Source: Nesterenkonia ebinurensis | GTDB taxonomy: Bacteria > Actinomycetota > Actinomycetes > Actinomycetales > Micrococcaceae | Assembly: GCF_008711175.1 (NCBI RefSeq) | Contig: NZ_VWNF01000032.1 | Span: 186,001-250,000 of the forward strand | Length of the DNA stretch: 64,000 nt | Direction of reading: 5' to 3' | Shown: positions 10,083 to 64,000 of the stretch, piece by piece | How the letters are laid out: every line of letters begins with the position of its first letter | How positions within the stretch are numbered: the stretch's first letter is position 1 | The notes under the pieces: model-generated | Told to the model about the DNA's origin: nothing | Databases searched by the model: none | Seen by the model: only the letters and a program-made list of their open reading frames with translations | Translations under genes and position numbers: made by a program

Positions 10083-10418
10083 GGCCCCCAGGCTACAGGC
10101 GCCCGGTCCCAGACCCCAGCCCTCCCGACTTCTGGCGCAATATACAGTACGGGCCTACAGTTACGGTCCCCCTCACCCTCCGTATTCGGTTCCGGCGGCT
10201 GAATTCCTTCACCCCGCTCTCTGCGCAAGCGCAGCACTGCTCAATCGCCTGCCCGCATAGCGGGCAACCCTCAGTCGCCCCGGGCATTGCGCCGCAAGCG
10301 CCGGATCTCACTCGGCTCAGTCGGGTCTCAGAACACTTTGAGCAAGCTCCGGTCTTCTCTCGACTCAGTCGCCTTGCCGGCGAATACTGCACAGGCTCCG
10401 CGAGTACAGTGGGCAGAT
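10083..10418. repeat. Intergenic block packed with family-A palindromic repeats
   Basis: This 336 bp gap between divergent cbs and the AlkA-like gene holds at least three related elements in about 10216-10381. Read on the minus strand, 10373-10340 has GACTGAGTCGAGAGAAGACC, and 10325-10268 has GACTGAGCCGAGTGAGAT followed by a CGGCGCTTGCGGCG hairpin and CCGGGGCGACTGAGG. Next to these is the hairpin GCCCGC-ATA-GCGGGC (about 10251-10265). The same signature recurs inside mutY, the M13 peptidase gene and folP. The cbs promoter probably lies in 10130-10160, where a TATATT hexamer is visible on the minus strand. Confidence 0.75.
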
Positions 10419-11546
10419 GTGACGTATCTGGGCGAGCGGGTGGTGGACCTCGGGTCGCCCTATGATCTGGCCGGCACGCTGGGGGTGCTGCAGCGCGGGC
10501 ACGGCGATCCGGCAATCCGCTTGGCTGAGCAGCGCGCCTGGATGTGCCAGAGGATGTACGACGCCGTCGGGACTGAGTTGGGTGCTGTCACCTACCGGTT
10601 TGACCAGGTCAGCGCCTCGGAGGTTCGGGTACAGATAGCAGCCGATTCGGCCGAGGCTCTTGAGTCTGCACTGGACCGCTCCCCGACCATACTTGGCTCT
10701 GAGGACGACTGGACGGAGCTGGAGCTTCTGCTGGACGCCTTGGGCGACCGGATCTCCACCACTCTGGCGCAGGTGCGACGCCGCCACCCTGGGGTGCGTC
10801 TGCCCGCCACCGGGGCACTGTTCGACCAGCTGGTCACCGTGACCCTGGAGCAGAAGGTCACTCATGAGCAGGCGCGGTACAGCTGGCGGAACCTGCTGCG
10901 GAAGTACGGTGACCGGCCTCCGGGATGGGTCAGCTGCGAGCAAAGCGACGCAGCAACTTCAGGCGCGAAGGCCGCGGCAATGCGGCCGAGAGCCGTGCCT
11001 GACGGCGGCCGCGACGTCGGGGACTCGTACAAACAGTCTGCCGTTTGTGCAGACCACGTGGGGGTGTGCGCGCCGGTGGGACCGGCGCTGAGACTGCCGC
11101 TGAGCCCAACCCAGCTCAAAGCTGTGCCGAGCTGGGAGTGGCACCGGCTCTGGGTGCAGCCGTCGCTGTCGAAGACTGTGTTGCGGCTGGCCGAGCGGGC
11201 GCACAGCATCCACCGTCTGGGCGCCGCGACCACGGTGGACGCTTTTGAGGTGGGCGAACTGGCCGAACAGCTGATCGCGATCCCCGGCATCGGGCAGTGG
11301 ACTGTGGCCGAGGCACTGCAGCGTTCGCACGGGGCAGCGGATCTTCCAGCCGTGGGCGACTACCACCTGGCGCACTTTGTGGGCGAGGCGCTGACGGGTC
11401 AGCGCACCGATGACGCCGGGATGCTTCGTCTGCTGGAACCCTTCGCCCCGCACCGGCAGCGGATCATCCGTCTGTTGCTGCTCTCCGGGTTCCGGATGAG
11501 CCGGCTCGGCCCACGGCTTACACCGGAGGATCACCGCGAACGGTGA
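10419..11546 (+). CDS. AlkA-like DNA-3-methyladenine glycosylase
   Basis: A 375-residue base-excision glycosylase of the helix-hairpin-helix GPD type. The hairpin LIAIPGIGQWTVAEA is followed by the catalytic aspartate in AVGDYHL. I start it at GTG 10419: TACAGT lies 8 nt upstream as a possible -10, implying a leaderless message. The open frame extends to a TTG at 10287, but that extension consists of repeat sequence. A segment of about 35-45 residues at 10940-11075, just after KYGDRPPGW, looks inserted and contains a family-B repeat. The core fold around it appears intact, so the protein may still work. Confidence 0.85.
   Translation: MTYLGERVVDLGSPYDLAGTLGVLQRGHGDPAIRLAEQRAWMCQRMYDAVGTELGAVTYRFDQVSASEVRVQIAADSAEALESALDRSPTILGSEDDWTELELLLDALGDRISTTLAQVRRRHPGVRLPATGALFDQLVTVTLEQKVTHEQARYSWRNLLRKYGDRPPGWVSCEQSDAATSGAKAAAMRPRAVPDGGRDVGDSYKQSAVCADHVGVCAPVGPALRLPLSPTQLKAVPSWEWHRLWVQPSLSKTVLRLAERAHSIHRLGAATTVDAFEVGELAEQLIAIPGIGQWTVAEALQRSHGAADLPAVGDYHLAHFVGEALTGQRTDDAGMLRLLEPFAPHRQRIIRLLLLSGFRMSRLGPRLTPEDHRER
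10956..11022. repeat. Family-B palindromic repeat inside the AlkA-like gene
   Basis: It begins with ACTTCAGGCGCGAAGGCC, then the arms GGCCGC and GCGGCC, then GCCGAGAGCC. Near-identical openings occur at 13896 (intergenic) and, on the minus strand, in the start of the polyprenyl synthase gene. It is in frame and introduces a Ser/Ala/Arg/Asp-rich stretch. Confidence 0.6.
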
Positions 11547-11669
11547 TCAGCTAAGCCCCCGGCTGCCCGATTGGGCTGAATGCAGCCCGCAGCATGCGAG
11601 ACGTCCGAAACGATTGAGGGCATCTCCGCCTAGCGGAGGCACCACCGGCACCCGGGAAAAGGGGGCGGC

Positions 11670-12041
11670 TCAGGACTCAGCGCTCTGCTGCTCGTCGATC
11701 TGCTTGTGGACCTCGTCCATGTCCAGGTCCTTCACTGCGGTGACCACCTGGGTGAGCTGCTCGGCGTTGAGTGCGCCGGGCTGGGAGAACACCAGGACCT
11801 TCTCGCGGAAGACCATCAGAGTGGGGATGGAGCTGATCTTGGCCGCGGCGGCCAGCTCGCGCTCTGCCTCGGTGTCCACCTTGGCGAAGGTGACCTCGGG
11901 GTGTTCCTCGGAGACCTGCTCATACACCGGGGCGAATTGTTTGCAGGGACCGCACCAGTCGGCCCAGAAGTCGATGAAGAGAATATCGGAGTCCTCCAGC
12001 GTCTGCTGGAAGGCATCAGTGGTCAGTTCTGTAGTAGCCAT
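11670..12041 (-). CDS. trxA: Thioredoxin
   Basis: A 123-residue thioredoxin with the redox motif WCGPCK (active cysteines about 30 and 33) and the cis-proline SIPTLMVF. It runs slightly past the usual fold with a charged tail (DEVHKQIDEQQ). It reduces protein disulfides in the cytoplasm. I place the start at ATG 12041; a GTG 9 nt earlier is possible, and neither has a clear ribosome site. It converges with the AlkA-like gene and has no obvious operon partner. Confidence 0.93.
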   Translation of the reverse strand: MATTELTTDAFQQTLEDSDILFIDFWADWCGPCKQFAPVYEQVSEEHPEVTFAKVDTEAERELAAAAKISSIPTLMVFREKVLVFSQPGALNAEQLTQVVTAVKDLDMDEVHKQIDEQQSAES

Positions 12042-12133
12042 GGGCGCCACGATACGGGAGCGCTAGGCCGTTGTGGAGCCTTGGCGGGCATTAAGCGAGA
12101 GGCGAATCCGGGGAATAGTCCGCCCTCGATCCA

Positions 12134-12203
12134 CAACTACACTGAGTTTTCACACCTGCATCAGCTTATAACCCGGTGTACTCATGAAAAGTCGGTGTAG
12201 TTG
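12134..12203. repeat. Long inverted repeat, AGTTG-type hairpin 1
   Basis: Arms CAACTACACTGAGTTTTCA (12134-12152) and TGAAAAGTCGGTGTAGTTG (12185-12203) pair over 19 positions with one mismatch and one wobble around a 32 nt spacer. It lies between trx and tRNA-Tyr. It resembles the hairpins at 16117 and 46558 in arm length, TTTCA near the loop, and an AGTTG/CAACT core. Confidence 0.6.
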
Positions 12204-12293
12204 ACCAGGAACGCCTGTGGCCCTGGTGCAATAGCTGAGCCCGACCAGGACTGCCAGCCGAAGAAAAACTGAACGATGTCCGCTTACCCGAAA

Positions 12294-12333
12294 GAAGTGT
12301 CAGGACAATCGCGGAACGATGTCCTGACACTTC
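12294..12333 (-). terminator. Perfect 14-bp hairpin downstream of tRNA-Tyr
   Basis: GAAGTGTCAGGACA (12294-12307) and its exact complement (12320-12333) flank a 12 nt spacer, 8 nt beyond the tRNA 3' end. On the minus strand a short TTTC follows, so termination of the tRNA transcript is plausible though the T-tract is weak. The 11-mer GAACGATGTCC also occurs twice here (near 12271 and 12314). Confidence 0.55.
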
Positions 12334-12340
12334 ACAGCAG

Positions 12341-12422
12341 TGGCGGGTGAGGGATTCGAACCCACGTAGGCAGTGCCAGCTGATTTACAGTCAGCCCCCT
12401 TTGGCCGCTCGGGTAACCCGCC
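12341..12422 (-). tRNA. tRNA-Tyr (GTA)
   Basis: An 82 nt class II tRNA with seven-base-pair acceptor stem GGCGGGT/ACCCGCC and discriminator A; CCA is not encoded. The anticodon loop CTGTAAA gives anticodon GTA. The T arm is GTGGGTTCGAATCCC, and a long variable arm is as expected for bacterial tRNA-Tyr. A promoter-like TTGTCC, 17 nt spacer, TGCTAA lies just upstream and a hairpin just downstream, so it is probably a single-gene unit. Confidence 0.96.
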
Positions 12423-12428
12423 TGGTTC

Positions 12429-12457
12429 TTAGCATCCGCGCAGAACGCACCGGACAA
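12429..12457 (-). promoter_or_regulatory. Likely tRNA-Tyr promoter
   Basis: On the minus strand TTGTCC (12457-12452) and TGCTAA (12434-12429) are separated by 17 nt, with the -10 hexamer ending 6 nt before the mature tRNA 5' end. Spacing is canonical; the hexamers are imperfect. Confidence 0.45.
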
Positions 12458-12544
12458 CTTTACCGCAAGCTCGCGGCAAAACTCGAATCCGCCCAGAGCG
12501 TAGGATGGAGCGCAGATTCACTACCCGACCCGGAGGCTGCCGCG

Positions 12545-13855
12545 ATGTCTGAGCTCGACGCCGAGGAGCTGGCTGCCCGGCTCAGCAATCGGACCCCGGC
12601 AGGCATCGCCACCCAGATCGGTGAGCTGATCGAGCAGAAGGTGCTGCCGGTGGATTCCCGGCTGCCCACAGTCCGCGATCTGGCCCAAGAGCTCGGCGTC
12701 AGCGTGGGCACCATCGCCCAGGCCTGGAGCCATCTGCGCGAGCAGGACCTGGTGGAGACACGACGCCGCGGCGGCACCCGGGTGCTGCCCAAGGCCCGGC
12801 GTCGGGCGGAGGACTTCTCCGGCCCCGGAGCGCCGCTGAAGAAGCTGGGCTTTCTGACCATCGGCCTGTTCGACCCCGCTGACCCCGGTCCGGGACACGA
12901 GTCCACGCTGAAGATCATCGAGCTGGGTGAGCAGCTGGGCTTCGACTCCGCCTGGCTGCGCCACCGGCATCTGCAGTTCGGCATCTCCTCGCCGGTGGCG
13001 GTGATGGCAGCCGCCTCCCAGCGCACCAGCCGGATTGAGCTGGGCACCGCGGTGACCCCGTTGGGCTGGGAGAACCCGCTGCGGCTGGCCGAGGATCTGG
13101 CCACGGTGGATGTGCTCTCCGGCGGGCGGATCAACCCGGGTGTGAGCGTCGGCGAGCCCATGCACTATGACACTGTGCGGGATGCTCTGTACCCAGACGC
13201 GGCTGAGGTGGAGGATTTCAGCAAGGTCCGGGTACAACGGCTGGCGGACTTCATCGCCGGTGAGCCGGTCCGGGAGTTCTCCGGCAAACAGGGTGTGGTG
13301 GAGGAGTTCTCCCGCCGCGTGGAGCCGCACTCCCCCGGACTGCGGGAACGGCTCTGGTACGGGGCAGGCAGTATCTCCTCTGCCCAGTGGGCAGGCCGAG
13401 CAGGGCTGAACCTGCTGTCCTCCTCGGTGCTCTTCCCAGCCGGCGACACCGAAGACTCACCTGATTTCGCTTCGGTTCAGGCCGCTCAGATCCAGGCCTT
13501 CCGTACCGCCCACCCGGCCGGTGAGAGCGCCCGAGCCTCGCAGGGCCTGGTGGTCATCCCCACTGATACCGCCTCCCGGGAGCAGGAGGCCAAATACCGC
13601 GCCTACGCCCAGGAGCGGCTGCCACGCACCCGCCAGCCGCAGCAGCTGGGGCCAAAGCGTGCGATGTTCGCCCCAGATCTGGTGGGCAGCTCCGATGAGA
13701 TCGCCGATGCCCTGCTGGCCCACGCCGGCTATCTGGAGGTGGACGAGGTGGCTTTCGCTCTGCCGTTCAGCTTTGACTACGAGGACTATGTGCAGATCCT
13801 CACCGACATCGCCACCCGCCTAGCTCCCGCATTGGGTTGGCGGCCAAAAAGCTGA
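12545..13855 (+). CDS. GntR-type winged helix fused to luciferase-like flavin monooxygenase
   Basis: A 436-residue two-domain protein. Residues about 12-78 form a GntR winged helix (IATQIGELIEQKVL, SRLPTVRDLAQELGVSVGT, ETRRRGGTRV). Residues about 95-430 match the luciferase-like FMN/F420-dependent oxidoreductase barrel (EQLGFDSAWLRHRH, RIELGTAVTP, ATVDVLSGGRINPGVSVG). A GGAGG lies 8 nt before the ATG. This combination parallels MocR proteins (GntR plus aminotransferase), so the flavin domain may act as a sensor of a flavin or substrate, or the protein may be a self-regulating enzyme. No target gene is adjacent. Both family assignments are clear; the function is unknown. Confidence 0.85.
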   Translation: MSELDAEELAARLSNRTPAGIATQIGELIEQKVLPVDSRLPTVRDLAQELGVSVGTIAQAWSHLREQDLVETRRRGGTRVLPKARRRAEDFSGPGAPLKKLGFLTIGLFDPADPGPGHESTLKIIELGEQLGFDSAWLRHRHLQFGISSPVAVMAAASQRTSRIELGTAVTPLGWENPLRLAEDLATVDVLSGGRINPGVSVGEPMHYDTVRDALYPDAAEVEDFSKVRVQRLADFIAGEPVREFSGKQGVVEEFSRRVEPHSPGLRERLWYGAGSISSAQWAGRAGLNLLSSSVLFPAGDTEDSPDFASVQAAQIQAFRTAHPAGESARASQGLVVIPTDTASREQEAKYRAYAQERLPRTRQPQQLGPKRAMFAPDLVGSSDEIADALLAHAGYLEVDEVAFALPFSFDYEDYVQILTDIATRLAPALGWRPKS

Positions 13856-13895
13856 GCAGCATCGGGTGAGACACAAACATCAGCAATGTGCTGCC

Positions 13896-13982
13896 GACTT
13901 CAGGCGTGAAAGCCGGCGTCTCCCTGACGAGGCCCACACGGGTCCCCGACGTCAGGGGCCCTTGCAGCCGGCCGAGAGAGGC
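13896..13982. repeat. Family-B palindromic repeat, intergenic
   Basis: It opens with ACTTCAGGCGTGAAAGCCGG and closes with GCCGGCCGAGAGAGG. Between these, CCCTGACG and CGTCAGGG form a hairpin. It lies between the convergent GntR-LLM and yajQ genes and may also act as a bidirectional stop. Confidence 0.55.
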
Positions 13983-14014
13983 CACCTCACGGCGCGGGCG
14001 GCCACGGGACAGAC

Positions 14015-14503
14015 TCAGCGCATGTTGACGAACTGCAGATCGGCGTCCTCAAAGTCCTTGAGCATGGCGATCACGGCCTGCAGGTCATCCCGGGACTTGG
14101 AGCTGACCCGCAGCTCATCGCCCTGGATCTGAGCTTTGACCGACTTTGGCCCCTCATCACGGATCTGCTTGGAGATCTTCTTGGCCGTGGCCTGATCGAT
14201 CCCCTCCTTGATTCGCCCCTCGATCCGGTAAGTCTTGCCGAACTGCTTAGGTTCGGAGGCCTCATAGGACTTCAGCGAGATCCCACGCTTGATCAGCTTG
14301 GACTCCAGCACATCATTGGCGGCCTTGGCTCGCTCCTCGGCGTTGGCGGAGATGAGGATGATTTCCCCGTTCTGCTCCACCGAGGCCTCGGTGCCGCGGA
14401 AGTCGTAGCGCTGGGCAATCTCCTTGGCAGCCTGGTTCAGCGCATTGGAGACCTCCTGCGGGTCCACCTTGGAGACAATGTCGAACGTCGATTCCTTGGC
14501 CAT
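14015..14503 (-). CDS. YajQ-family nucleotide-binding protein
   Basis: A 162-residue YajQ family member of normal length. It starts with [20 protein letters not shown] and includes [13 protein letters not shown] and the C-terminal [13 protein letters not shown] typical of the family. Some homologues bind cyclic di-GMP and act with transcription factors; others bind nucleic acids. It is monocistronic on the minus strand and converges with the GntR-LLM gene. Confidence 0.93.
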
Positions 14504-14562
14504 GACAGGCTCCTTCAGTAGTCGGTCAGGTCTATCACCAGCTTACGTCCGATTGAGGCCAG

Positions 14563-14632
14563 TGGCGTCGTAGGCCGGTGTGGAGTCCTCCGAGGCGACT
14601 GATGAGCGCGAGCGAAGGGACGACGTCGCCCC
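14563..14632. repeat. Partial family-A palindromic repeat
   Basis: GGAGTCCTCCGAGGCGACTG followed by AGCGCGAGCGAAGGGACGACG matches the right half of the copy inside the M13 peptidase gene (53277-53363, minus strand) and the copy at the end of folP. It lies between yajQ and the MetE-like leader. Confidence 0.6.
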
Positions 14633-14676
14633 CACCCTTAACATTCTGAACATAAGTCTCACTGCACTCCGGATTG

Positions 14677-14838
14677 TGTAAGATCATTTCAGCAGCGCGC
14701 ATGCGAAGCCTCGCGCCAGGCCCCCGGGAGCATCCGGCTCGGCCGGCACCGCTGCGAACCGAGAACACGCACCGTGTGCTGTGCCGAGTGGTTCGCAGCC
14801 TCCTGAGAAGACGAGGCAGCTGAAGCCGTCGGCACAGC
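14677..14838 (+). ncRNA. Structured, pseudoknot-capable leader of the MetE-like gene
   Basis: After a possible -10 TAAGAT (14677-14682) the leader can form: P1, GCTGCGAACC (14751-14760) with GGTTCGCAGC (14790-14799), ten perfect pairs; an inner hairpin ACACG-CAC-CGTGT (14765-14777); and a ten-pair long-range helix between GCTGTGCCGA (14778-14787, inside the P1 loop) and TCGGCACAGC (14829-14838). The last is an H-type pseudoknot ending 10 nt before the AGAAAGGA ribosome site. A small GCCTC/GAGGC hairpin fits between. I could not match it to a riboswitch class I know. A methionine-pathway sensor is inferred from the gene it precedes. Confidence 0.5.
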
Positions 14839-14865
14839 GATACCTGAAAGAAAGGACGCAGCCGC

Positions 14866-16101: not shown

Positions 16102-16116
16102 GGAACTGCAGCAGAA

Positions 16117-16177
16117 TACCCGGCAGTTGTTTCATATTTCGCCGTTTTCAGGCGTTCTTTGAAACAACTGCCGGGTA
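16117..16177. terminator. 18-bp perfect inverted repeat, AGTTG-type hairpin 2
   Basis: TACCCGGCAGTTGTTTCA (16117-16134) pairs perfectly with 16160-16177 across 25 nt that contain an inner CGCC-GTTTTCA-GGCG. Placed just after the MetE-like stop and before the end of the convergent Na/Pi gene, it could terminate both. It is related in design to the hairpins at 12134 and 46558. Confidence 0.65.
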
Positions 16178-41398: not shown

Positions 41399-42387
41399 GT
41401 CAGAAGCCGCGTGACCGATTGAGCCGAGTGAAGACCGGAGCTAGCTCCAGGTATTCCGGGGCGATCGAGGAAAGCGAGAGCCTTCGGCTCTCGCAGGCGG
41501 TGCACGAGGCCGCCGTCTCCTGGTATCACCGTGCTGCCCGAGACCTGCCCTGGCGCCGCCAGGACTGCTCTGCATGGGGTGTGCTGGTCTCCGAGACCAT
41601 GCTGCAGCAGACTCCTGTGGCCCGGGTGCTGCCCCGTTGGGAGGAGTGGATGCGCCGCTGGCCCACCCCGCACGAGACCGCCAAGGCACCTGTGGCTGAA
41701 ATCCTCACCGTCTGGGACCGGCTGGGCTACCCGCGGCGCGCGCTGCGGCTGCAGCAGACGGCGGCTGCGATTGTGGAACATCACGACGGCCAGGTGCCCA
41801 GCACCCGGGATGAGCTGCGCGCTTTGCCGGGTGTCGGTGAGTACACCGCTGCAGCAGTGGCCTGCTTCGCCTTTGGCGTCCCTGAGGTTGTGGTGGACAC
41901 CAATATCCGCCGGGTGCATACCCGGGTGTTCTCCGGGCACGCCCTGCCAGGAAAGACCTACACCGCGCAGCAGCGCAGGCTCGCCCATGATGTGTTCCCG
42001 GATCCGGAGCACGACTGCGGACAGTTTGCCTGTGCCTGGAACATCGCTGTGATGGAGCTTGGTGCTCTGGTCTGCACGGCCCGGGCCCCGCAGTGCGGAG
42101 CCTGCCCGGTGGCTGAGCTCTGTACCTGGCGGCGGGCCGGATTCCCGCCGCCCACCGAGGAGCAGAAGCCTCGTGGGCAGGCCTGGGCAGGCACCGACCG
42201 ACAGGTCCGCGGGGCGCTGATGGCGGCGCTGCGCTGTGGGCCTGCACAGCGCTCAGTGCTCATTGCTTCGCTACCCCTTCCGGCTGCGGACCTGGATCAA
42301 CGGCACCGCTGCCTGGAGTCGCTGCTGACAGATGGCCTGGCTGAGCAGCGCGGAGACCAAGTCGCCCTGCCGGGGGTGCTGCGCTGA
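41395..42387 (+). CDS. mutY: Adenine DNA glycosylase MutY
   Basis: A 330-residue MutY removing A opposite 8-oxoG. The catalytic region LPWRRQD...WGVLVSETMLQQT, the hairpin LPGVGEYTAAA with D in VDTNIRRV, and the 4Fe-4S cysteines in CTARAPQCGACPVAELC are present. The first roughly 35 residues (DRLSRVKTGASSRYSGAIEE) come from a family-A repeat and precede the normal MutY start region VSWYHRAARDLPW. ATG overlaps the PAP2 stop (ATGA). The C-terminal NUDIX-like domain of many MutY proteins appears reduced. Confidence 0.92.
   Translation: MSQKPRDRLSRVKTGASSRYSGAIEESESLRLSQAVHEAAVSWYHRAARDLPWRRQDCSAWGVLVSETMLQQTPVARVLPRWEEWMRRWPTPHETAKAPVAEILTVWDRLGYPRRALRLQQTAAAIVEHHDGQVPSTRDELRALPGVGEYTAAAVACFAFGVPEVVVDTNIRRVHTRVFSGHALPGKTYTAQQRRLAHDVFPDPEHDCGQFACAWNIAVMELGALVCTARAPQCGACPVAELCTWRRAGFPPPTEEQKPRGQAWAGTDRQVRGALMAALRCGPAQRSVLIASLPLPAADLDQRHRCLESLLTDGLAEQRGDQVALPGVLR
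41413..41494. repeat. Family-A palindromic repeat in the mutY 5' end
   Basis: GACCGATTGAGCCGAGTGAA, GACCGGAGCTAGCTCC (hairpin), CCGGGGCGATCGAGG and a closing hairpin GCGAGAGC-CTT-CGGCTCTCGC. Read in the same frame as the M13 peptidase copy: both give DRxSRxKTG...S.AIE. Confidence 0.75.
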
Positions 42388-46692: not shown

Positions 46693-49209
<2,517 letters not shown>

Positions 49210-51854: not shown

Positions 51855-53954
51855 TCACCAAATAGTTACCCGTTGCTCCGGGGCGAGGTACATGCTGTCA
51901 CCCTCTGCGGTGCCGAAGGCATGGTGGAAGGCGTCCACGTTCTTCACCGGCTGGGTGGCGCGGAACTCGGCCGGGGAGTGCGGGTCGATGCTCAACAGGG
52001 TCATCGCCCGCTCCGGACGGGTGACGTTCCGCCAACCCTGGGCCCAGGCGAAGAAGAACCGTTGATCACCAGAAAGACCGTCGATGGCGTCGTCGTCTGT
52101 GTCCGGACCGTCCACCTCGGTGATCGGCTTGTCCTGGTTCTTGGCCGCCAACCACAGCTTATAAGCCTTATGGGCGATGCCGATGCCGCCGAGATCGCCG
52201 ATGTTTTCACCCAGGGTGAGCTCCCCGTTGACGGTGTGCTCATCGTCCAACACAGTGGGGCTGAGCACCTGGTACTGGTCCACCAGCTTGGCGGTGCGCT
52301 TCTCGAATGCGGCCCGGTCCTCATCGGTCCACCAGTTGGTCAGTGAGCCGTCGGCGCCGAACTTTGATCCCTGATCGTCAAAGGCGTGACCGATCTCATG
52401 GCCGATCACCGCGCCGATAGCCCCGAAGTTCTGGGCCATATCCCGTTCCACGGAGAAGAACGGCAGCTGCAGGATGGCGGCGGGGAACACGATCACCGAC
52501 TCCAGCGGGGAGTAGTAGGCGTTGACCGTCTGCGGAGTCATATGCCACTCATCGGGGTCCGGACCCTCGTCGATCTTGGCTGTGTCCCGCTCCCAGGCGG
52601 CCACCGAGGCGGCAGAGACGTTGCCGACTACGTCATCTGCGGCAACGGTGACCTCAGAGTAGTCGATCCATTTGACCGGATAGCCGATCATCGGGCGCAG
52701 GGCCTCAAGCTTCTCCAGAGCCTTGGCCCGGGTCTGCTCGCCCATCCATTCCAGCTCGGAGATGGACCGGCGGTAGGCCTCCACCAGGGCAGCGATCAGC
52801 TCATCCATGGCCTGGCGGGCTTGCGGCGGGTAGTGCCGGGCCACGTAGATCTGAGCCACATCCTCACCCAGATGGGCATTGGTGAGGGCGACGCCGCGCT
52901 TCCACCGCTCCTTGAGCTTTGGAGTGCCGTTGAGAGTTTTGGAGTAGAACTCAAAGTGAACATCAACCAGCTCGGAGTGCAGCAGCGGGGCGAAGGCGGT
53001 GATGAGTTTGGCGGACAACCAGTGCTTCCAGGCTTGAAGCGGCTGCTCGATCAACGCAGACTGGAAGGCTGACAGCACTTCAGGCTGGGCGACCACGATC
53101 TCAGCGGCCTGGGAGTCGGTCAGCCCCCAGCCCTGGATCGCCTCAGCGACCAGCGGCATGGCCTCCTCCACCTCACCACGGGTCTTGAGGTTGTACTGCT
53201 TCTGGTAGTCGCGACAGGCAACCCGGTCCCAGTGGTGGGATGCCAAGGCGGTTTCCAATTCCAGAACTGAGGACGCCGCGTCGTTCGCACCTTCGGCGCT
53301 CATTCCCTCAATCGCCTCGGAAGACCCGGAACCGGTTCCGGTCTTCTCTCGGCTGGCTCGGTCACCATTGTCTGCGTATCCGGCGATAGCGAAGATGGTG
53401 GTGAGGTACTGCTGGTACTTCTGGCGGGTCTCAGCATGCTTGTCCTCGCGGTAGTAGGCCTCATCGGGCAGGCCCAGGCCGCCCTGGCCGATGAACCAGA
53501 GCATCCGGGTGGGATCACCCATGTCTCGCAGGGCCCCGGCGGAGAGCAGTCCGTCCACGTCCTCGCGCTGCCACTGGGCACTGAGTCGGACCAAATCTCC
53601 CGGGGTGCTCAGCGCCTCAATCTGCTCCAGCCGGTCTTGGATAGGTGCCAGCCTGAGCGCCTCTGCGAGGTCAGCATCCATGAACGCGGAGTAGAAGGTG
53701 CCGATGCGTTGTCGGATTGCACCGAAGTCTGGATCGAGGTCAGCACCTTGAGCGGTGGCGGCCTCAGCAGCCTCATCGAGGATGGCGCGCACATCAGCCT
53801 CAGCCTTGTCCCGCAGCTCCAGAAAGGATCCATAGGCATCCAGGTCCTCAGGGATTTCAGCGGTCTTCAACCATTCGCCGTTGACATGCTGGTTCAGGTC
53901 ATCCTGGGGCCGGACGGAGGGATCAAGGTACGGGAAGTCAGTTGCAGTGCTCAT
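51855..53954 (-). CDS. M13-family zinc metallopeptidase (PepO/neprilysin-like)
   Basis: A 699-residue M13 endopeptidase with the zinc motif HEIGH (in VIGHEIGHAFDDQGS), the downstream ENIGDLGG glutamate, and NAYYSP substrate-binding sequence. No signal peptide or N-terminal membrane helix, so it is cytoplasmic like other actinobacterial PepO proteins. Residues about 198-226 (GDRASREKTGTGSGSSEAIE and on) interrupt the conserved helical domain and derive from a family-A repeat. It is monocistronic, between lysS and the DUF4097 group. Confidence 0.92.
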   Translation of the reverse strand: MSTATDFPYLDPSVRPQDDLNQHVNGEWLKTAEIPEDLDAYGSFLELRDKAEADVRAILDEAAEAATAQGADLDPDFGAIRQRIGTFYSAFMDADLAEALRLAPIQDRLEQIEALSTPGDLVRLSAQWQREDVDGLLSAGALRDMGDPTRMLWFIGQGGLGLPDEAYYREDKHAETRQKYQQYLTTIFAIAGYADNGDRASREKTGTGSGSSEAIEGMSAEGANDAASSVLELETALASHHWDRVACRDYQKQYNLKTRGEVEEAMPLVAEAIQGWGLTDSQAAEIVVAQPEVLSAFQSALIEQPLQAWKHWLSAKLITAFAPLLHSELVDVHFEFYSKTLNGTPKLKERWKRGVALTNAHLGEDVAQIYVARHYPPQARQAMDELIAALVEAYRRSISELEWMGEQTRAKALEKLEALRPMIGYPVKWIDYSEVTVAADDVVGNVSAASVAAWERDTAKIDEGPDPDEWHMTPQTVNAYYSPLESVIVFPAAILQLPFFSVERDMAQNFGAIGAVIGHEIGHAFDDQGSKFGADGSLTNWWTDEDRAAFEKRTAKLVDQYQVLSPTVLDDEHTVNGELTLGENIGDLGGIGIAHKAYKLWLAAKNQDKPITEVDGPDTDDDAIDGLSGDQRFFFAWAQGWRNVTRPERAMTLLSIDPHSPAEFRATQPVKNVDAFHHAFGTAEGDSMYLAPEQRVTIW
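53277..53367. repeat. Family-A palindromic repeat inside the M13 peptidase gene
   Basis: On the minus strand: GCCGAGAGAAGACCGG, AACCGGTT (palindrome), CCGGGTCTTCCGAGGCGATT and GAGGGAATGAGCGCC. It matches the mutY copy in both nucleotide order and translation frame. Confidence 0.75.
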
Positions 53955-57562: not shown

Positions 57563-58489
57563 TCAATGCTCCTCGGAGAGCAGATCGAGCAGCTCGGCGG
57601 CCTTGACTTCGGACAGCACGCCCAGGCTCAGGGCCCGCTGCACGGCAGACTGGGCCATTGCCGAATAGGCAGCGCGCACATCGGCAGGAAGATCCGGATC
57701 CGCCAGGGTCTGCAGATGCTTGCTCACGGTACCGGCATCGCCGCGGGCCACCGGGCCGGTCAGTGCACCGACACCGGAGGCCAGCGCATTGTCCAGGGAG
57801 GCCTGCATCAGCGGGCCCAGCACTCGGGCGGGGTCGGCCACTCCGAGCTGCTCGAGCACCTCAGCCGACTGAGCAGCAAGGATGTTCAGATGATTGGCGG
57901 CATGGCTCAGCGCAGCGTGGTAGGCCCCGCGGTGCTCCTCAGCCACCACCACCGGCTCCCCGCCCATTTCCACTGCGAGCGCCTGAGCCACCGGCAGCAC
58001 CTCATGTTCCGCCGTCACAGCAAAAGCGCAGGCACCCAGCCGCTGCAGGTCCAGACTCATCCCGGTGAAGGTCATAGCAGGGTGGACCGCCAGACCAATG
58101 GCGCCGACCTGCTCCGCCGGAGCCAGCACTGAAGTGCCGTAGCGCCCAGAGGTGTGCATCACCAGCTGCCCGGGCTGGAAGTGCCCAGCCTCAGCGGCAC
58201 CGGCCACCAACTCGGCTAGGGCGTCGTCGGGCACCGCCAGCAGCACCAACTCCGCACGGCGGAGTATCTCCGGAATCTCAAGCACCGGCACGCCGGGCAG
58301 CAGATGCTCAGCCCGGTCCTGGGACTCCGCAGAGACTGCGTGCACGCCCACCACCTGGTGGCCTGCTCCGCGCAGAGCTGCGCCCAGCACGGCTCCGACT
58401 TTCCCTGCGGAGATCACCCCCACGCCGAGCCGGCCGTCCCGGGCAGTGGGCGGCAATTCGGCGGCATAGGGGTCGATCGGTCTGTTCAC
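57563..58489 (-). CDS. Rossmann/DUF2520 domain protein
   Basis: A 308-residue protein with an N-terminal NAD(P)-binding Rossmann fold (VGVISAGKVGAVLGAALRGAG) and a C-terminal helical DUF2520 domain (HRGAYHAALSHAANHLNILA). It resembles the ketopantoate/6-phosphogluconate dehydrogenase fold and in actinobacteria is regularly next to panC, hinting at a pantothenate-linked reductase. GTG 58489 overlaps the PH-domain gene stop. Confidence 0.85.
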   Translation of the reverse strand: MNRPIDPYAAELPPTARDGRLGVGVISAGKVGAVLGAALRGAGHQVVGVHAVSAESQDRAEHLLPGVPVLEIPEILRRAELVLLAVPDDALAELVAGAAEAGHFQPGQLVMHTSGRYGTSVLAPAEQVGAIGLAVHPAMTFTGMSLDLQRLGACAFAVTAEHEVLPVAQALAVEMGGEPVVVAEEHRGAYHAALSHAANHLNILAAQSAEVLEQLGVADPARVLGPLMQASLDNALASGVGALTGPVARGDAGTVSKHLQTLADPDLPADVRAAYSAMAQSAVQRALSLGVLSEVKAAELLDLLSEEH

Positions 58490-60312
58490 AGCCCAGCCCC
58501 TGGCCGGCCGCCGAACTGCTGCGCCCCTGCTGCAGGTGATGAGCCGTGGGCAGCTGAGGCGGCGGGGGCGGCGTCGTAATCTGCCTCTTCCAGCTTCTGC
58601 TTGGCCTCGGCCACATTCTTCTCGAACTCGTCCAGCTCCTCGGGCTGCATCCACTGGTTCCGGTCGGCCAGCCGACGGGCCACAGCAGCATAGCCGGCCT
58701 CCTGCTCAAACAGCCAGCTGATCTGCTCCAAGTCCTGGTTCTTGGCTCGGGCGGTGATGGGTCCGGCCGGAATATGGATGTGCAGAGTGGCGATCCGGAT
58801 CATCCTGGCCAGCGGCCCCTGGTGCAGAGCGGCGGACTGGATGCGCTCATGCGGGACCATCGTCAGGGTCCGGGTCACCCGGCCGTCGCGGATCATCAGC
58901 GCGCTGGGGGTGACAAAGAATCCACGACGACGACGCACCATCGGATCGAATGCTCTGGCCCGCCTGGGCACCTCGGTGAATCCGCGCTCCGCGCCACGGC
59001 CGCGCAGCCCTTCGAAGAACACCTGCTCGGGGTTGTCCACCTGCAAGTCCGGGAACATCTCAGCGGTCAGCCGCATCACATCCTCAGCGCCGCCCACCGG
59101 CAGCAGTGTAGAGCGAGAGTCCAAGCCATAGCCGGCCACCGTCACGGTTACCGAGTACCAGCCGAAGGTCCGCCACAGCACTGGTTGGCGGATCTGGATG
59201 GCCTGCACGCGGCCGGGCGGAACGGTCTGGGTGTTGGTGGTGGTCAGCCCGTACTTCAGCCTCAGCCCGGCCTGGGTCATGGTCGCAGTGAAGTTCCAGC
59301 CGTTGGACAGCTGGTTCCAGAAGGCGAAGATCGCCCCGATGAGGATGGGGACGAAGAACGGCACGTTGATCTGGCCGAAGGCCTCTCCGATTGGTTCGTC
59401 CCGGACAAGCACAAAGAACGAGGCGATGCCCCCCAGGAGGGCGAACAGGCACAGCGCCAGGACGATGAACACCAGGGTACTGCCGCCCACCAGCACCGAG
59501 CCGATCAGTCGGGGCACCGGAACCCGCACGATCTGGCGGTCCTGGCCCCCAGGATGGTGTGTTGTTTCCCCTTGAATAGCCGCAGGCTCGGTGGTTTTCT
59601 GCGGATTTTGGCACACCGTGTCGCCAGGCGGGGCCTGGGAATCGCCGGAGTCGGGGGCAGCGAGGTCTGGGACTGCGGCGTCGTTCTCCTGTGACCTGGC
59701 CGGGGGCCGGCCGGCGGCGCGGTCCATGATCTCGGCGCGCAGCTGCTCGGCCTCGTGTTTGCGCAAAAACGCCAGAGTGGCTGCGGTGCCGTCACCCTCG
59801 GCCACCTCGAAGCGCAGCTCGGCCAGCTTGGCGATGCGGGCCAGCAGGGGTTGGCGCAGGTCTACCGCCTGCACCCGGTCGATCCGGGCCTGCCGATGCT
59901 GGCGGACGAAGATCCCGGACTTCACCATCACGTGCTCCTCGGTGACCTTGTACCGGGTGAACCACCAGGAGAGGGTGAAGCCCATGAAGATCAGCACCGC
60001 CAGACCGAGGAACAAAGCCCCGCCGATCAGGTAGGGGGTGGGGTTGGTCTGCAGGTTATCGACGAGCTCCCCGGACTGCCAGGCATTCCAGAGGTCAGAG
60101 AACATCTGCCAGTTGTAGGAGAAGAACGCCACCGGGATCGCCACCACGGTCACCCAGCCGCGCACCAGCGGGCTCAGCGGATGGACCTTGGTCCAGGTCT
60201 CATCGAACCAGCCTTCGGAGCTCTCCTGCTGAGGTTCCTGCCCCTCAGTGGTGGATCCGGGCTGCTCAGGGGGCGGGGCGTCGGCGTAGTGCTCTTCTGG
60301 GCGCTCTGTCAT
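58486..60312 (-). CDS. PH domain membrane protein (YdbT-like)
   Basis: A 608-residue protein with bacterial PH domains following membrane pairs: helices near 50-75 and 82-110, a PH domain starting RYKVTEEHVMVKSGIFVRQHRQARIDRVQ, a polar insert (about 205-260), helices at 285-340, and further PH units (LKYGLTTTNTQTVPPGRVQA; RDGRVTRTLTMVPHERIQSA). Segments are quoted in short. In Bacillus YdbS-YdbT protect against certain antimicrobial peptides; here the role is unknown. Coupled to the preceding and following genes. Confidence 0.85.
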   Translation of the reverse strand: MTERPEEHYADAPPPEQPGSTTEGQEPQQESSEGWFDETWTKVHPLSPLVRGWVTVVAIPVAFFSYNWQMFSDLWNAWQSGELVDNLQTNPTPYLIGGALFLGLAVLIFMGFTLSWWFTRYKVTEEHVMVKSGIFVRQHRQARIDRVQAVDLRQPLLARIAKLAELRFEVAEGDGTAATLAFLRKHEAEQLRAEIMDRAAGRPPARSQENDAAVPDLAAPDSGDSQAPPGDTVCQNPQKTTEPAAIQGETTHHPGGQDRQIVRVPVPRLIGSVLVGGSTLVFIVLALCLFALLGGIASFFVLVRDEPIGEAFGQINVPFFVPILIGAIFAFWNQLSNGWNFTATMTQAGLRLKYGLTTTNTQTVPPGRVQAIQIRQPVLWRTFGWYSVTVTVAGYGLDSRSTLLPVGGAEDVMRLTAEMFPDLQVDNPEQVFFEGLRGRGAERGFTEVPRRARAFDPMVRRRRGFFVTPSALMIRDGRVTRTLTMVPHERIQSAALHQGPLARMIRIATLHIHIPAGPITARAKNQDLEQISWLFEQEAGYAAVARRLADRNQWMQPEELDEFEKNVAEAKQKLEEADYDAAPAASAAHGSSPAAGAQQFGGRPGAGL

Positions 60313-60824
60313 CAGAGTCCTGCCAGACGTGCCTGGCCGCGGACGGAGAGCTCATCGCGCAGCCGCGCACCCTCGGAACGGACCGCACCAGGGATAGTGG
60401 CGTCAGTGGCTGCCGAAGCAGTTTTCAGCTGCACGGTGCACAGCCCGAACTTGCGCATCAGCGGGCCGGCCTCGATGTCCACATATTGCAGCCGGCCATA
60501 GGGCACGGCCACCACCCGCTGGAAGAGGATGCCGCGGCGGATGAGCAGGTCGTCAGCGCGCTCGAAGTAGCCGATGGCGCGCACCCGCCGGGGCACCAGG
60601 ACGATGTCGATGACCGCCCAGACCAGCAGCACCGCCAGGACGGGCCATTTCAGCCAGTCCGGGATGCCCCAGCCCAGCATCGCATCGGCTACCACGGGGG
60701 CGGCCACAATCGCAATGGTGATCAGCCAGCTGGTGATCGTGCTGATGTACCTGACCGTGATGTATTTATCGTCCACCCGGGTCCATTCAACCCCTGTCGG
60801 GTCGATGGCTTCAGAGTGCAGCAT
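60312..60824 (-). CDS. PH domain protein (YdbS-like)
   Basis: A 170-residue protein with two membrane helices (about 28-75) and one PH domain (FERADDLLIRRGILFQRVVA, PYGRLQYVDIEAGPL). Partner of the larger PH protein, whose ATG overlaps this stop (TGATG). GGAG lies 4 nt before the chosen ATG. Confidence 0.88.
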   Translation of the reverse strand: MLHSEAIDPTGVEWTRVDDKYITVRYISTITSWLITIAIVAAPVVADAMLGWGIPDWLKWPVLAVLLVWAVIDIVLVPRRVRAIGYFERADDLLIRRGILFQRVVAVPYGRLQYVDIEAGPLMRKFGLCTVQLKTASAATDATIPGAVRSEGARLRDELSVRGQARLAGL

Positions 60825-61356
60825 TGGGCTCCGTTCCTTCGTCGAATTCCGAATTCTCAAGGCCTGACCCCCGGTCGGGGGGTATCCGGCACAGGGTCTC
60901 TACCACGAACCCTATGATCACCCACAGCATTCCGCCGATCACCACCGTCAGGGCTGCGGTGACATTGGGGGTGCCAATTCCGGCTGCAGGTCCCAGGTCC
61001 AGCAGCACCCCGGCATGCCAGCCGGCGATCAGCGCCCCGGCGTAGGCACAAGCCTGGCCGGCAGCCACCACCCGCACCGCCTGCAACGGGTGAAGCCTGC
61101 GCCCGGACTGATCCGGGGAAGAACGACGACGCCGCCCCTCCTGATCCGCACCGCCCTCAAGTCGGCGCTGGTCCCACCAGACCACCAGACCCAGAGCCAG
61201 CACGATCAGTCCCACCGCCACCAGGGTAATCACCGATGACAGGGGTAGCACCGGAGAGCTGTAGCCGGCATTGCGCATCGCGAGCGTGGCCAGGTAGCCG
61301 GCCAGGGCGGCACCTGCGGCAATGATCAGCAGCCACAGCGGGCGCAGCTGGGTCAC
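60811..61356 (-). CDS. DUF3180 membrane protein
   Basis: A 181-residue protein with four hydrophobic helices (about 7-25, 37-60, 95-115, 130-150) and a polar middle loop (GGADQEGRRRRSSPDQSG). Matches the actinobacterial DUF3180 family, which is regularly found after folK. Overlaps both neighbours. Function unknown. Confidence 0.88.
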   Translation of the reverse strand: MTQLRPLWLLIIAAGAALAGYLATLAMRNAGYSSPVLPLSSVITLVAVGLIVLALGLVVWWDQRRLEGGADQEGRRRRSSPDQSGRRLHPLQAVRVVAAGQACAYAGALIAGWHAGVLLDLGPAAGIGTPNVTAALTVVIGGMLWVIIGFVVETLCRIPPDRGSGLENSEFDEGTEPNAAL

Positions 61357-62459
61357 GAGTCCAGCCTCACCACATCCGAGTAGTCCTCAGCCTCCTCGGC
61401 AAGCTCGCGCACTGGGCGGCCGCCCAGCAGGGCCACCGGATCCATCCAGCTCCAGGGCAGCAGCACGAATGCCCGCTCAGCGGCCGAGGGGTGTGGGACC
61501 TGCAGACGCGGGGAGTCGATCGTGGCGCTGGCATAGGTCACGATGTCCACGTCCAGGGTCCGCGGCCCGTGCCGCTGCTCGCGCACCCGGTTGTGGTCCT
61601 CCTCGATCTGCTGGGCCAGGTCCAGCAGCCCGTGCGGGGAGAGCTGCGTCTCGATCTCCACCACTTGGTTGAGATAGTCGCGCTGATGGGCTGGTCCACC
61701 CATCGGTTTGGTGCGCGCCAGCGGCGAGGTGCTGACTATCACGACGCCGTCGGCGGCCTCCAGTACCTGGATGGCCGAGGCTAGCGTGCTCCGGGAATCA
61801 CCGAGGTTGGAGCCCAGGGCCAACACACTGCGCACCGGGAAGGCTGCCTCCAGGTCCGGGTCGCGGTAGTGGGCCTTCGCCGCCTCCCCGTCCTCGCCGA
61901 GGTCAGCCAGGGACTTACGTTCGTAGTAGCCCAGCCCGGCGGTGGGAGTGGTGACTGTGGCTCCTTCTGGCGGGCTGGCTGCTGAATGGGCGGAGGCGGG
62001 GGTGGCGGCGTCGTTGTCCTCCACCAGTTCCCCCTCATACACCCCAGAGACTTGTTTGCGCGGCTCGCCCAAGGCGCGGCTGGCGCCGAGCTCATCACGG
62101 GTGCGGTGAATGATGACCGAGACGTCATCGAACTCATAGGGCATGGGTGCCTGGGGCTTGTGCACGGTGATGGTCACCGCCTGGATGCGGTCGTCCAGCC
62201 CCAGGATCCGCGCGGCACACTCGGCGGCGATCCGTTCGATCAGCCGGTAGGACTCGCCGGTGACCACCTGCTCGATGTCGAAGGCCACATCGGCGTAGGA
62301 GATGGTGTCCTCCAGATTGTCGGTGCGGCCGGCCGCAGCCAGGTCCACCTGCACCTCAGCGTCGATCACAAATGGCTGGGCGGTGCTGCGCTCATCGGGG
62401 AGCACACCATGGGTTCCTTCGAACCGCAGGCCGGTCAGCCGGATCAGATCGTAGCCCAT
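61353..62459 (-). CDS. folK: Bifunctional dihydroneopterin aldolase / HPPK
   Basis: A 368-residue FolB-FolK fusion. Residues 1-120 are FolB (LTGLRFEGTHGVLPDERS, SYADVAFDI, VTITVHKPQAPMP). A low-complexity linker (about 145-200) leads to FolK (SVLALGSNLGDS, RTKPMGGPAHQRDYLNQVVE, REQRHGPRTLDVDIV). It performs two consecutive steps of folate synthesis. The linker is longer than usual. Confidence 0.93.
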   Translation of the reverse strand: MGYDLIRLTGLRFEGTHGVLPDERSTAQPFVIDAEVQVDLAAAGRTDNLEDTISYADVAFDIEQVVTGESYRLIERIAAECAARILGLDDRIQAVTITVHKPQAPMPYEFDDVSVIIHRTRDELGASRALGEPRKQVSGVYEGELVEDNDAATPASAHSAASPPEGATVTTPTAGLGYYERKSLADLGEDGEAAKAHYRDPDLEAAFPVRSVLALGSNLGDSRSTLASAIQVLEAADGVVIVSTSPLARTKPMGGPAHQRDYLNQVVEIETQLSPHGLLDLAQQIEEDHNRVREQRHGPRTLDVDIVTYASATIDSPRLQVPHPSAAERAFVLLPWSWMDPVALLGGRPVRELAEEAEDYSDVVRLDS

Positions 62460-62488
62460 GCTTTAAGGCTACAGTGCTTATGCGGTGG

Positions 62489-63217
62489 TCAGACCAGGCG
62501 CGTCACCGTGTGTGCTGAGGCGATGACCTCGGGGTCGTGGCTGGCCACCAGGACCGCGGCCCCGGAGCTGGCGGCGGTGTGCATTGCCTCAATCACCGTA
62601 TTGGCGGTATTGCGGTCCAGGCTGGCGGTGGGCTCGTCCAGGGCCAGGGCGGTGGGTTCCAGCAACAGGCCACGCACGATTGCCAGCCGCTGTCGCTCAC
62701 CGCCGGAGAGGCTGCGCGCTTTTTGCCGCGTGGCGGCTGCCAGGCCGAAGCGTTCCAACAGCTCATTGGCGCGCTGGGTGATCTCTGCAGTGATGCCTTC
62801 GGGCATGGCGGGGATGAGCACATTGTCCAGCACGGTGAGCTCCTCGATGACTGTGGCTCCTTGGTCCACATACCCCATGTGTTGACGCCGGGCTGCGGCC
62901 AGCTGCTTGTGGTTCAGACCCACGATGGCGGACTCGGCCCAGCGCACTTCGCCTGAGGTGGGGGTCTGGGTGGCGGTGGCCACCCGCAGCAGGGAGGTCT
63001 TGCCGGAGCCGGATCGGCCGGCCAGGCAGTGCACCGCGCCCTGCGGGATGGTGAGGCTGAAATCCTGAACGATGACCCGCTCATTGCCGTCAGCCTCGGT
63101 GTAACGAATGGTCACGCCCTCCAACTCCACCGCTGGTGGACCGGTGGGCACCGGTCGTTGGACTTCGGCGCCCAGGATGTCGGCGGAGTGTTTGCGGCGT
63201 TTGAGCAATCCCCTCAT
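62489..63217 (-). CDS. Orphan ABC transporter ATP-binding protein
   Basis: A 242-residue ABC ATPase of the MacB/LolD type: Walker A GRSGSGKTS, signature LSGGERQRLAI, Walker B ALALDEPTA, switch SHD. No permease is adjacent; folB-folK follows by 29 bp and folP precedes by 42 bp. A partner elsewhere or a soluble role is possible. Confidence 0.88.
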   Translation of the reverse strand: MRGLLKRRKHSADILGAEVQRPVPTGPPAVELEGVTIRYTEADGNERVIVQDFSLTIPQGAVHCLAGRSGSGKTSLLRVATATQTPTSGEVRWAESAIVGLNHKQLAAARRQHMGYVDQGATVIEELTVLDNVLIPAMPEGITAEITQRANELLERFGLAAATRQKARSLSGGERQRLAIVRGLLLEPTALALDEPTASLDRNTANTVIEAMHTAASSGAAVLVASHDPEVIASAHTVTRLV

Positions 63218-63259
63218 GGCTATCCACCTTACACAGTTCGCTCGGGGCGGGAATGGAAT

Positions 63260-64000
63260 TTACGACCCCTGATTGAGCCGAGTGGAGAACGGCACGGGCG
63301 CCGGGTCTTCCGAGATTGAGGAGCGTGCGCGAAGCGAGACCGCCTGCAGCACCTTGAGCGTGTCGACGTTGGGTTGAGGAGCATGCACCCTGACCGCCCA
63401 GCAGCCGACCTGTGCGGCAAGCATACTCAGTGCCGCAGTGGCGGTCTCCCGCTGTTCGGCTGGCCGAGCGGTGCCGTGCGGATCTGCGAGCAGGGTGCCA
63501 AGGAAGCCCTTGCGGGAGGCCCCGAAGAGCACCCGCTGGCCCAGCGCTGTGAACTGGTCAAGGTTGCAGATCAGCTCCCAGTTCTGCTGATGTGTCTTGG
63601 CGAAGCCAATACCGGGGTCCAGGATGATCCTCTCCGGCACCACCCCGGCGTCCACGTAGAGCTGGCGGATCTGGAGCAGTTCGGCGATCACCTCTGCAGT
63701 GACATCGGTGTACTGGGTCTTGGACTGCATGGTCTGGGGGTCGTCCCGATTATGGGTGATGACCACATCACAGCCGTAGTCTGCGATGACCTGCGGCATA
63801 TGCGGATCGGTGAGCAGCCCAGAGACATCATTGATGATCAGCTCCTGAGCACGTGAGCCCGCCAGCTCCAGCACAGCCCGGGCGGTCTGCGAATGCCGAG
63901 TGTCGATGGAGAGCTGAATCGGAAGCTCCAGCAGCTCTTTGAGCACAGGAATCACTCGGCGCTGCTCTTCGGCCGGGTCCACCGGCTCGGCACCCGGCCT
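63260..64000 (-). CDS. folP: Dihydropteroate synthase FolP, 5' part beyond the window
   Basis: The C-terminal 246 or so residues of FolP. VDPAEEQRRVIPV, LSIDTRHSQTA, IINDVSGL, ILDPGIGFAKTHQQN and LFGASRKGF are the pterin and sulfonamide-binding motifs. The N-terminus lies past position 64000. The last 20 residues (SSISEDPAPVPFSTRLNQGS) are encoded by an inverted family-A repeat. Confidence 0.92.
   Translation of the reverse strand, partial: RPGAEPVDPAEEQRRVIPVLKELLELPIQLSIDTRHSQTARAVLELAGSRAQELIINDVSGLLTDPHMPQVIADYGCDVVITHNRDDPQTMQSKTQYTDVTAEVIAELLQIRQLYVDAGVVPERIILDPGIGFAKTHQQNWELICNLDQFTALGQRVLFGASRKGFLGTLLADPHGTARPAEQRETATAALSMLAAQVGCWAVRVHAPQPNVDTLKVLQAVSLRARSSISEDPAPVPFSTRLNQGS
63271..63342. 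repeat. Family-A palindromic repeat at the folP 3' end
   Basis: Plus strand: GATTGAGCCGAGTGGAGAAC, then CCGGGTCTTCCGAGATTGAG and GAGCGTGCGCGAAGCGAG. It lies opposite in direction to folP and supplies its final codons. Confidence 0.75.

What the first reader, a model, noticed from the sequence alone, without database searches (positions are those of the whole stretch)
10216..63342. A dispersed palindromic repeat family (A) that inserts in frame into proteins
Copies share GAYTGAGCCGAGWGAAGACC, a variable central palindrome, then CCGGGTCTTCCGAGGCGATT and GAGG. I count copies at 10216-10381 (at least two), 14563-14632 (partial), 41413-41494 (mutY), 53277-53367 (M13 peptidase) and 63271-63342 (folP). 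The mutY and M13 copies are in the same frame and give DRxSRxKTG..S.AIE. This is the behaviour of Rickettsia palindromic elements, which I do not know to be described in Actinomycetota. The homology is directly visible; mobility is inferred.
Basis: partly seen in the sequence, partly recalled or inferred. Interest (0 to 1): 0.85.

Follow-up and report, generated by a model that had tools for sequence, protein, structure and literature searches.

The report
In-frame hairpin repeat in Nesterenkonia
This bacterium carries about a hundred scattered copies of a 75-81-letter DNA hairpin, some of which sit inside genes without breaking their reading frame and add about 25 amino acids to enzymes, much as palindromic elements do in Rickettsia.

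Summary
The window's genome belongs to the genus of Nesterenkonia muleiensis. A covariance model finds 118 matches at E<=0.001 in its 3.74 Mb, 36 in N. muleiensis (G040), 16 in G015, 1-2 in five other congeners and none in 22 of 30 genus genomes (150 candidates scored per genome). Relatives hold empty sites: the insert is 75 nt (short second hairpin), 81 nt (long) or about 150 nt (tandem form) inside conserved genes; in turn G015 and G040 have copies where this genome is empty. Hosts include IleS, ArgD, biotin carboxylase, a carboxyltransferase and an M13 peptidase. Of 116 copies with context, 32 are in-frame, open insertions, 25 of them in one sense frame. Flanks and empty sites resemble GACGNC, which in coding DNA falls mostly as codons GAC GNC (80 of 157); this explains much of the frame bias. 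No Y1/RAYT transposase was found in this genome. Among 80 units compared no pair is 95% identical: the spread is old and its enzyme unknown. It works like Rickettsia palindromic elements; homology to them was not tested. A longer form encodes a zinc-ribbon-like peptide.

The parts
10220..10376 (-). Tandem composite A+B: A unit (BLAST 10327-10370), B unit (CM 10267-10329), then hairpin GCCCGC-TAT-GCGGGC; outer ends approximate
11562..11621 (+).
   Evidence: (E 2.5e-7)
14544..14618 (+). Weak diverged copy with short second hairpin (CGCGAGCGAAGG)
   Evidence: E 1e-5
41410..41494 (+). Copy in frame in the N-terminal part of MutY, long second hairpin GCGAGAGCC-TTC-GGCTCTCGC; right end approximate
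53286..53366 (-). 81-nt insertion (27 aa) inside an M13 peptidase; flanked by GGTGAC and AACGAC; absent in relatives
63264..63335 (+). Copy antisense to folP; encodes the C-terminal tail of the folP ORF (63260-63982, -)

Best explanation
A non-autonomous, hairpin-forming dispersed DNA repeat of the genus Nesterenkonia. Anatomy: a GACGNC-like 6-mer, CGATTGAGCCGAG, hairpin H1 (12-bp stem), CCGAGGCGATTGAG, a second hairpin H2 (short GCGAAGC form or longer forms, often with a GNA loop), and a second GACGNC-like 6-mer. It inserts at GACGNC-like sites in one orientation relative to the site. Such sites fall mostly in codon phase GAC-GNC in these GC-rich genes, the insert length is a multiple of three in the clean cases (75, 81, ~150), and the only open sense frame starts at that phase. 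An insertion in a gene therefore usually adds a hydrophilic ~25-residue segment (RLSRxKTGxxSxSSEAIE...) instead of disrupting it; selection removes harmful ones. Shown: copy number, empty sites, lengths, frame bias, H1 covariation, H2 complementarity, target-like flanks. Inferred: movement through a single-stranded hairpin intermediate and an unknown trans-acting enzyme, and target preference as the main cause of the frame bias.
For: 118 CM matches at E<=0.001, 112 places after merging 6 tandem pairs by hand. Clean empty sites: C46:95696 (5 of 5 relatives found), C46:98287 (5 of 5), C1:590763 (4 of 4 found; exactly 75 nt against G040), C1:591914 tandem form (3 of 3 found; 150 nt against G015). 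M13: in 26 of 27 other genomes with a match the alignment is split at residues ~192-202/216-226, and in the 17 of 27 rows read in the right frame the insert is absent. Reverse cases: G015 and G040 copies at sites empty in this genome. Empty sites mostly read GACGAC, GACGTC, GACGCC or GACGGC. 25 of 32 in-frame open insertions share one sense frame, P 4e-10 against equal use of the 4 open frames. H1: 86% of 307 cells paired; 19 double-changed cells vs 5.8 in shuffles. H2: 39 of 116 copies have a stem >=5 bp vs 10.5 in shuffles and 11 at a control position; 22 distinct closing stems. Hosts.
Against: Only 32 of 116 copies are clear in-frame insertions; 11 have same-strand coding calls in a different frame, 2 are in frame with a stop, 1 has opposite-strand calls, 51 have coding on one side, 19 on neither. 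Empty sites are not all GACGNC: GAGGTC, GACATC, GATGCC and GATGAG also occur in single relatives. Left and right 6-mers are not correlated in 29 short-H2 copies (120 of 174 matches vs 118.7 expected), so target-site duplication is not shown; in 15 long-H2 copies they are (39 of 90 vs 25.2) but subfamilies confound this; 65 of 109 copies had no classifiable H2 and were left out. Whole-element folding energy clearly beat shuffles in 1 of 6 copies. One covariation measure, pairs with a double change, was not above shuffles (6 vs 4.3, 83 of 500). No recent copies. 25:7 exceeds the GACGNC expectation 80:62 (P 0.009) and GACGMC 49:31 (P 0.03), so target choice alone may not be enough.
Confidence: 0.75

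Rival explanations
1. REP sequences mobilised by a RAYT (Y1 tyrosine) transposase, as in Pseudomonas or E. coli.
For: Hairpins, high copy number, dispersed, some in genes; intragenic REPs are described.
Against: No PF01797 match at E<=10 in this genome, while the control search rings in 10 of 14 genomes (6 over the cut-off) (congeners were not searched); no GTAG tag in the consensus; inserts are 75-81 nt with two different hairpins.
Confidence: 0.1
2. A MITE mobilised in trans by an insertion sequence that shares its ends and makes a 6-bp target duplication.
For: Direct GACGNC-like 6-mers flank many copies; non-autonomous size.
Against: No terminal inverted repeat seen between CGATTGAGC and the GCGAAGC end (by eye); the 6-mers do not vary together in short-H2 copies. 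Of 20 matches to the H2 end pattern, 18 adjoin model copies and 2 do not; of these two, C49:65650 is itself a longer, diverged copy and C50:31953 looks truncated in the 200 nt read. No transposase with these ends was met, but no systematic search for one was made.
Confidence: 0.15
3. A conserved RNA element (riboswitch, attenuator or terminator) with a function in cis.
For: Covarying stem.
Against: No Rfam match in the window except one tRNA; copies lie inside unrelated coding sequences and are absent from orthologues.
Confidence: 0.03
4. The inserts are a protein-level feature (mobile linker or zinc ribbon kept for its peptide).
For: Open frame, length multiple of three; Cys codons in the B module change less (mean 2.75 vs 5.25 nonsynonymous copies per codon, 17 copies).
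Against: No excess of synonymous change: 34 of 171 changed codons in B (expected 0.29), 34 of 200 in 21 genic A and 116 of 586 in 59 other A copies (expected 0.30); stems covary and so change the peptide.
Confidence: 0.07

Closest known systems
Rickettsia palindromic elements (RPE)
   Same: Short palindromic repeats inserted in frame in many unrelated genes and encoding a recurrent peptide (as described in PMC10969869, passages).
   Different: Different phylum; two-hairpin body with GACGNC-like flanks; 75/81/150 nt rather than ~150 bp; sequence homology not tested.
CGTC-tagged REPs (Di Nocera 2013, PMC3733652; includes RPE-4 and RPE-6)
   Same: GACG (CGTC on the other strand) borders the element; intragenic copies; no dedicated transposase known for them.
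   Different: Their stems are 8-9 bp with loops of 4-5 and mostly CCA tails; here H1 is a 12-bp bulged stem with a 2-nt loop and there is a second hairpin. The word Actinobacteria does not occur in that paper's main text.
Enterobacterial RU elements and MIRUs of mycobacteria
   Same: Small dispersed units that can lie in or overlap genes in frame (RU: start of abstract PMC2759123 in the listing; MIRU: recalled).
   Different: No shared sequence was tested; MIRUs (recalled) lie mainly between genes of operons.

Membership tests
Rickettsia palindromic elements | In-frame insertion in unrelated proteins, absent in orthologues | tested here: met
   absence in orthologues tested at M13 and at the sites only
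Rickettsia palindromic elements | Sequence homology to an RPE family | not tested
   No RPE sequence was fetched or aligned
CGTC-tagged REP | CGTC motif at one end | tested here: inconclusive
   GACGNC-like 6-mers lie at both ends, but empty sites hold them too, so they may be target, not element
CGTC-tagged REP | 8-9 bp stem, loop 4-5, CCA-like tail | tested here: not met
   H1 stem 12 bp with 2-nt loop; criteria
GTAG REP / RAYT system | Y1 tyrosine transposase in the genome | tested here: not met
   (own genome only, 98.65% complete, 50 contigs)
MITE | Terminal inverted repeats | tested here: not met
   By eye on the consensus ends
MITE | Target-site duplication | tested here: inconclusive
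Zinc ribbon (B module peptide) | Match to a zinc-ribbon profile above curated cut-off | tested here: not met
   Four 37-aa copies of 17, best E 0.0008-0.002, all below cut-off

The most novel reading that the evidence does not exclude
A selfish DNA element that is pre-adapted to life inside genes. Its target choice (GACGNC, read as an Asp codon plus GNC), its length (a multiple of three in every cleanly measured form) and its single open sense frame fit one another, so most sense-strand insertions are harmless added segments. Its long form drops a Cys4 zinc-ribbon-like module (CxxC-x9-CPxC) into host proteins, so such an element could be a source of new metal-binding domains. A relative with the same layout in another family of the order (G048) suggests a wider actinobacterial superfamily.
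Probability: 0.25. Interest if true: 0.82.

Novelty: new variant of a known kind. Interest (0 to 1): 0.66.

Why it matters
In-frame palindromic insertion is best known from obligate intracellular Rickettsia. An actinobacterial genus with about 110 copies in one genome, sister species with and without copies, and inserts in enzymes such as IleS and acyl-CoA carboxylase makes the old question testable: how such elements move, why they land in frame, and whether they feed new protein sequence. The target-phase idea is a concrete mechanism that can be tested on Rickettsia too.

Tried and rejected
Rfam search of the window: one tRNA only. RAYT search in the own genome: none. Plasmid and phage record searches with one copy: no match. 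Viral contigs: 5 pattern matches; the model gave nothing better than E 0.2 on those 5; the two-motif pattern gave 0. Whole-element DNA folding clearly beat shuffles in only 1 of 6 copies, so covariation was used instead. A first junction script printed no relatives for any copy; I changed its BLAST settings and flank limits and reran it. Of 9 sites, 4 are clean empty sites; C46:92914 and C22:267129 lack the element but with ragged flanks; C22:263675 is not alignable at the junction; C1:590020 gave only long, unreliable gaps; C46:99595 found no partner. In one search, 10 of 27 orthologue rows were a wrong-frame ORF picked by my script and were not used. Rows dropped: 8 of 30 copies for alignment A1, 4 of 30 for A2 (the model). 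Two of 118 copies (C8:29121, C9:37256) had no context when the frame table was made and were not added later. mutY was called mixed by the codon script because the upstream gene fills its left flank; it is not among the 25. From I first took a G040 copy (C8:2608) as shared with C50:69091; the check shows it is not.
Full report
What was checked. The left motif occurs five times in the window with up to three mismatches, against 0.01 expected in shuffles; the right motif with the same tolerance only once. An exact pattern scan of genome contigs (84,980 species; records of the window's own genome may be left out) found 6 stretches, in N. muleiensis and N. alkaliphila only.

Copy number. BLAST with one typed copy gave 43 matches at E<=10 in the own genome (40 of 67 candidates scored). 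A covariance model R1, built from 26 of 30 copies, gave 134 matches at E<=1 and 118 at E<=0.001 (150 of 3,088 candidates scored, so a lower bound). Six tandem pairs reduce the 118 to 112 places (counted by hand). In 30 genus genomes, 8 have a match at E<=0.001: own 118, G040 36, G015 16, and 1-2 in G001, G002, G004, G013 and G041; 22 have none (150 candidates scored per genome). In 297 genomes of the order, 5 have a match at E<=1e-4, the own genome and four others (18 candidates scored per genome, stricter filters). G048, of another family, holds two tandem copies with the same layout (CGATTGAGCCGAG, hairpin, CCGAGGCGATTGAG, then GGCCGTAGGTC); one begins at the stop codon of a long frame (by eye). 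The hits in G222, G233 and G312 are single and weaker (5.5e-9, 4.6e-6, 8.5e-5).

Anatomy. Reading 116 copies: GACGNC-like 6-mer; CGATTGAGCCGAG; H1; CCGAGGCGATTGAG; H2; a second GACGNC-like 6-mer. H1 is a 12-bp stem: 86% of 307 cells paired, 19 double-changed cells vs 5.8 in shuffles and covariation 0.259 vs 0.132 (0 of 500 shuffles as high for these three); further pair types 17 vs 12.8 (7 of 500); pairs with any double change 6 vs 4.3 (83 of 500), which is not above shuffles. Slid controls reach 0.115. The structure was read off these same sequences, which favours it. H2 is either short (GTGAGCGAAGCGAC) or a longer hairpin with loops such as GAA, GTA and GCA; 39 of 116 copies have a stem of at least 5 bp, against 10.5 in shuffles and 11 at a control position, with 22 distinct closing stems among the 39. 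Whole-element folding energy clearly beat shuffles in 1 of 6 copies. A second unit type, B, follows a 48-bp A unit in tandem forms such as window 10220-10376.

Insertion. The M13 peptidase carries a 27-aa segment that is missing in relatives. In one search, 26 of 27 other genomes with a match show the alignment broken there (the 27th, G020, is one gapped match); the 17 rows read in the right frame lack it; the DNA of G015 reads GATAAGGACGACGCC at the site. It also lies between the two stretches aligned with the solved protease 7k1v. Four further sites are clean in relatives: biotin carboxylase C46:95696 and a carboxyltransferase C46:98287 (75 nt; five relatives each), C1:590763 (75 nt against G040; other relatives have further indels) and a GNAT acetyltransferase, C1:591914, with the tandem form (150, 153 and 144 nt against G015, G040 and G001). 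At these sites the empty allele is GACGNC in most relatives, but GAGGTC, GACATC, GATGCC and GATGAG are also seen. Pfam and NCBIfam place inserts between domains of IleS and biotin carboxylase and within the family match of ArgD, the carboxyltransferase, a citrate-synthase-like protein and others.

Shared and private copies. Of 27 relatives' copies compared with the flanks of the own copies (20 of 36 from G040, 7 of 16 from G015), the check shows: G040 C16:85115 lies at the same place as C1:2113, G040 C29:65454 at the same place as C2:119931, and G015 C9:17852 at the same place as C10:6686, where G015 has a single unit and the own genome the tandem form. In contrast G015 C21:13343 and G040 C13:12730 lie at sites that are empty in the own genome, and G040 C8:2608 at one where it has unrelated, ragged sequence. 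Copies are thus partly inherited and partly lineage-specific.

Frame. Flanking 240-nt stretches were scored with a codon model from 28 window ORFs. Of 116 copies with context: 32 coding on both sides in one frame and open through the element, 2 in frame with a stop, 11 same strand but different frame, 1 opposite strands, 51 coding on one side, 19 on neither. Of the 32, 25 are in the sense frame GAC GCC CGA TTG AGC (24 of 31 after merging one tandem pair) and 7 antisense. Against equal use of the four open frames P is 4e-10. In 41,652 nt of coding sequence GACGNC occurs 80 times in sense phase 0, 15 times in the other sense phases and 62 times antisense. With this as expectation P is 0.009; with GACGMC it is 0.03; with the looser RRYGMC it is 7e-6. 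Target choice therefore explains much, perhaps not all, of the bias.

Target-site duplication. In 29 short-H2 copies the left and right 6-mers match no more than their composition predicts (120 of 174 vs 118.7). In 15 long-H2 copies they match more (39 of 90 vs 25.2), but these mix subfamilies; 65 of 109 copies were not classifiable. So the 6-mers may be a fixed target consensus, a duplication or element ends; this stays open.

The zinc-ribbon-like module. B copies in the sense frame read, as consensus, RLSRVKCGACGAMSEATEGCPQCGQAIEE. Four copies match several zinc-ribbon Pfam families at best E 0.0008-0.002, all below the curated cut-offs. Among 17 B copies (one weak match dropped) there is no synonymous excess (34 of 171, expected 0.29), though the Cys codons change less than others. 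The peptide is therefore probably a by-product of the palindromes or a relic, not clearly under present selection; a zinc ribbon remains possible.

Age and enzyme. Among 80 units of exactly 63 nt no pair is 95% identical; the best is 91% and the median nearest neighbour 79%. No Y1 transposase (PF01797) was found in the own genome. The moving enzyme is unknown.

Literature. Searches in the held library listed no paper that, by title and start of abstract, describes such elements in Actinomycetota or Nesterenkonia; I saw listings there, not the papers. Of PMC3733652 I saw the abstract, sections 6 and 15 and passages; of PMC10969869 passages only. RPEs, intragenic REPs and enterobacterial RU elements are the known kinds of in-frame repeats; MIRUs are recalled.

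Noticed in passing
L185:6026-6104 (G000:C46:96825-96903): A second dispersed GC-rich palindromic repeat (GTCCCGGCGGCGGGCGCATGTCCCGCCGCC...) also matched in G015, G040 and G004; by eye some intergenic copies of the studied element (C8:46634, C50:69091, C12:45301) abut or lie inside similar sequence.
   Followed up: partly
L185:559-619 (G000:C46:91358-91418): A third short repeat, matched in G040 at two unrelated places.
   Followed up: no
L280/L284 (G048:C14:143993-144130): Two tandem copies of the same layout in another family of the order, beginning at the stop codon of a long frame.
   Followed up: partly
window 48796-49168: Two direct copies of a 148-nt stretch, 71% identical, 225 nt apart, inside a long ORF.
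   Followed up: no
G000:C49:65650 and C50:31953: Two matches to the H2 end pattern beside no listed copy. C49:65650 ends a longer, diverged copy of about 123 nt; C50:31953 looks like a truncated copy inside coding sequence.
   Followed up: yes
G000:C10:6686 and G015:C9:17852: At the same place G015 has a single unit and the window's genome the tandem A+B form, so units may be gained or lost in place.
   Followed up: partly
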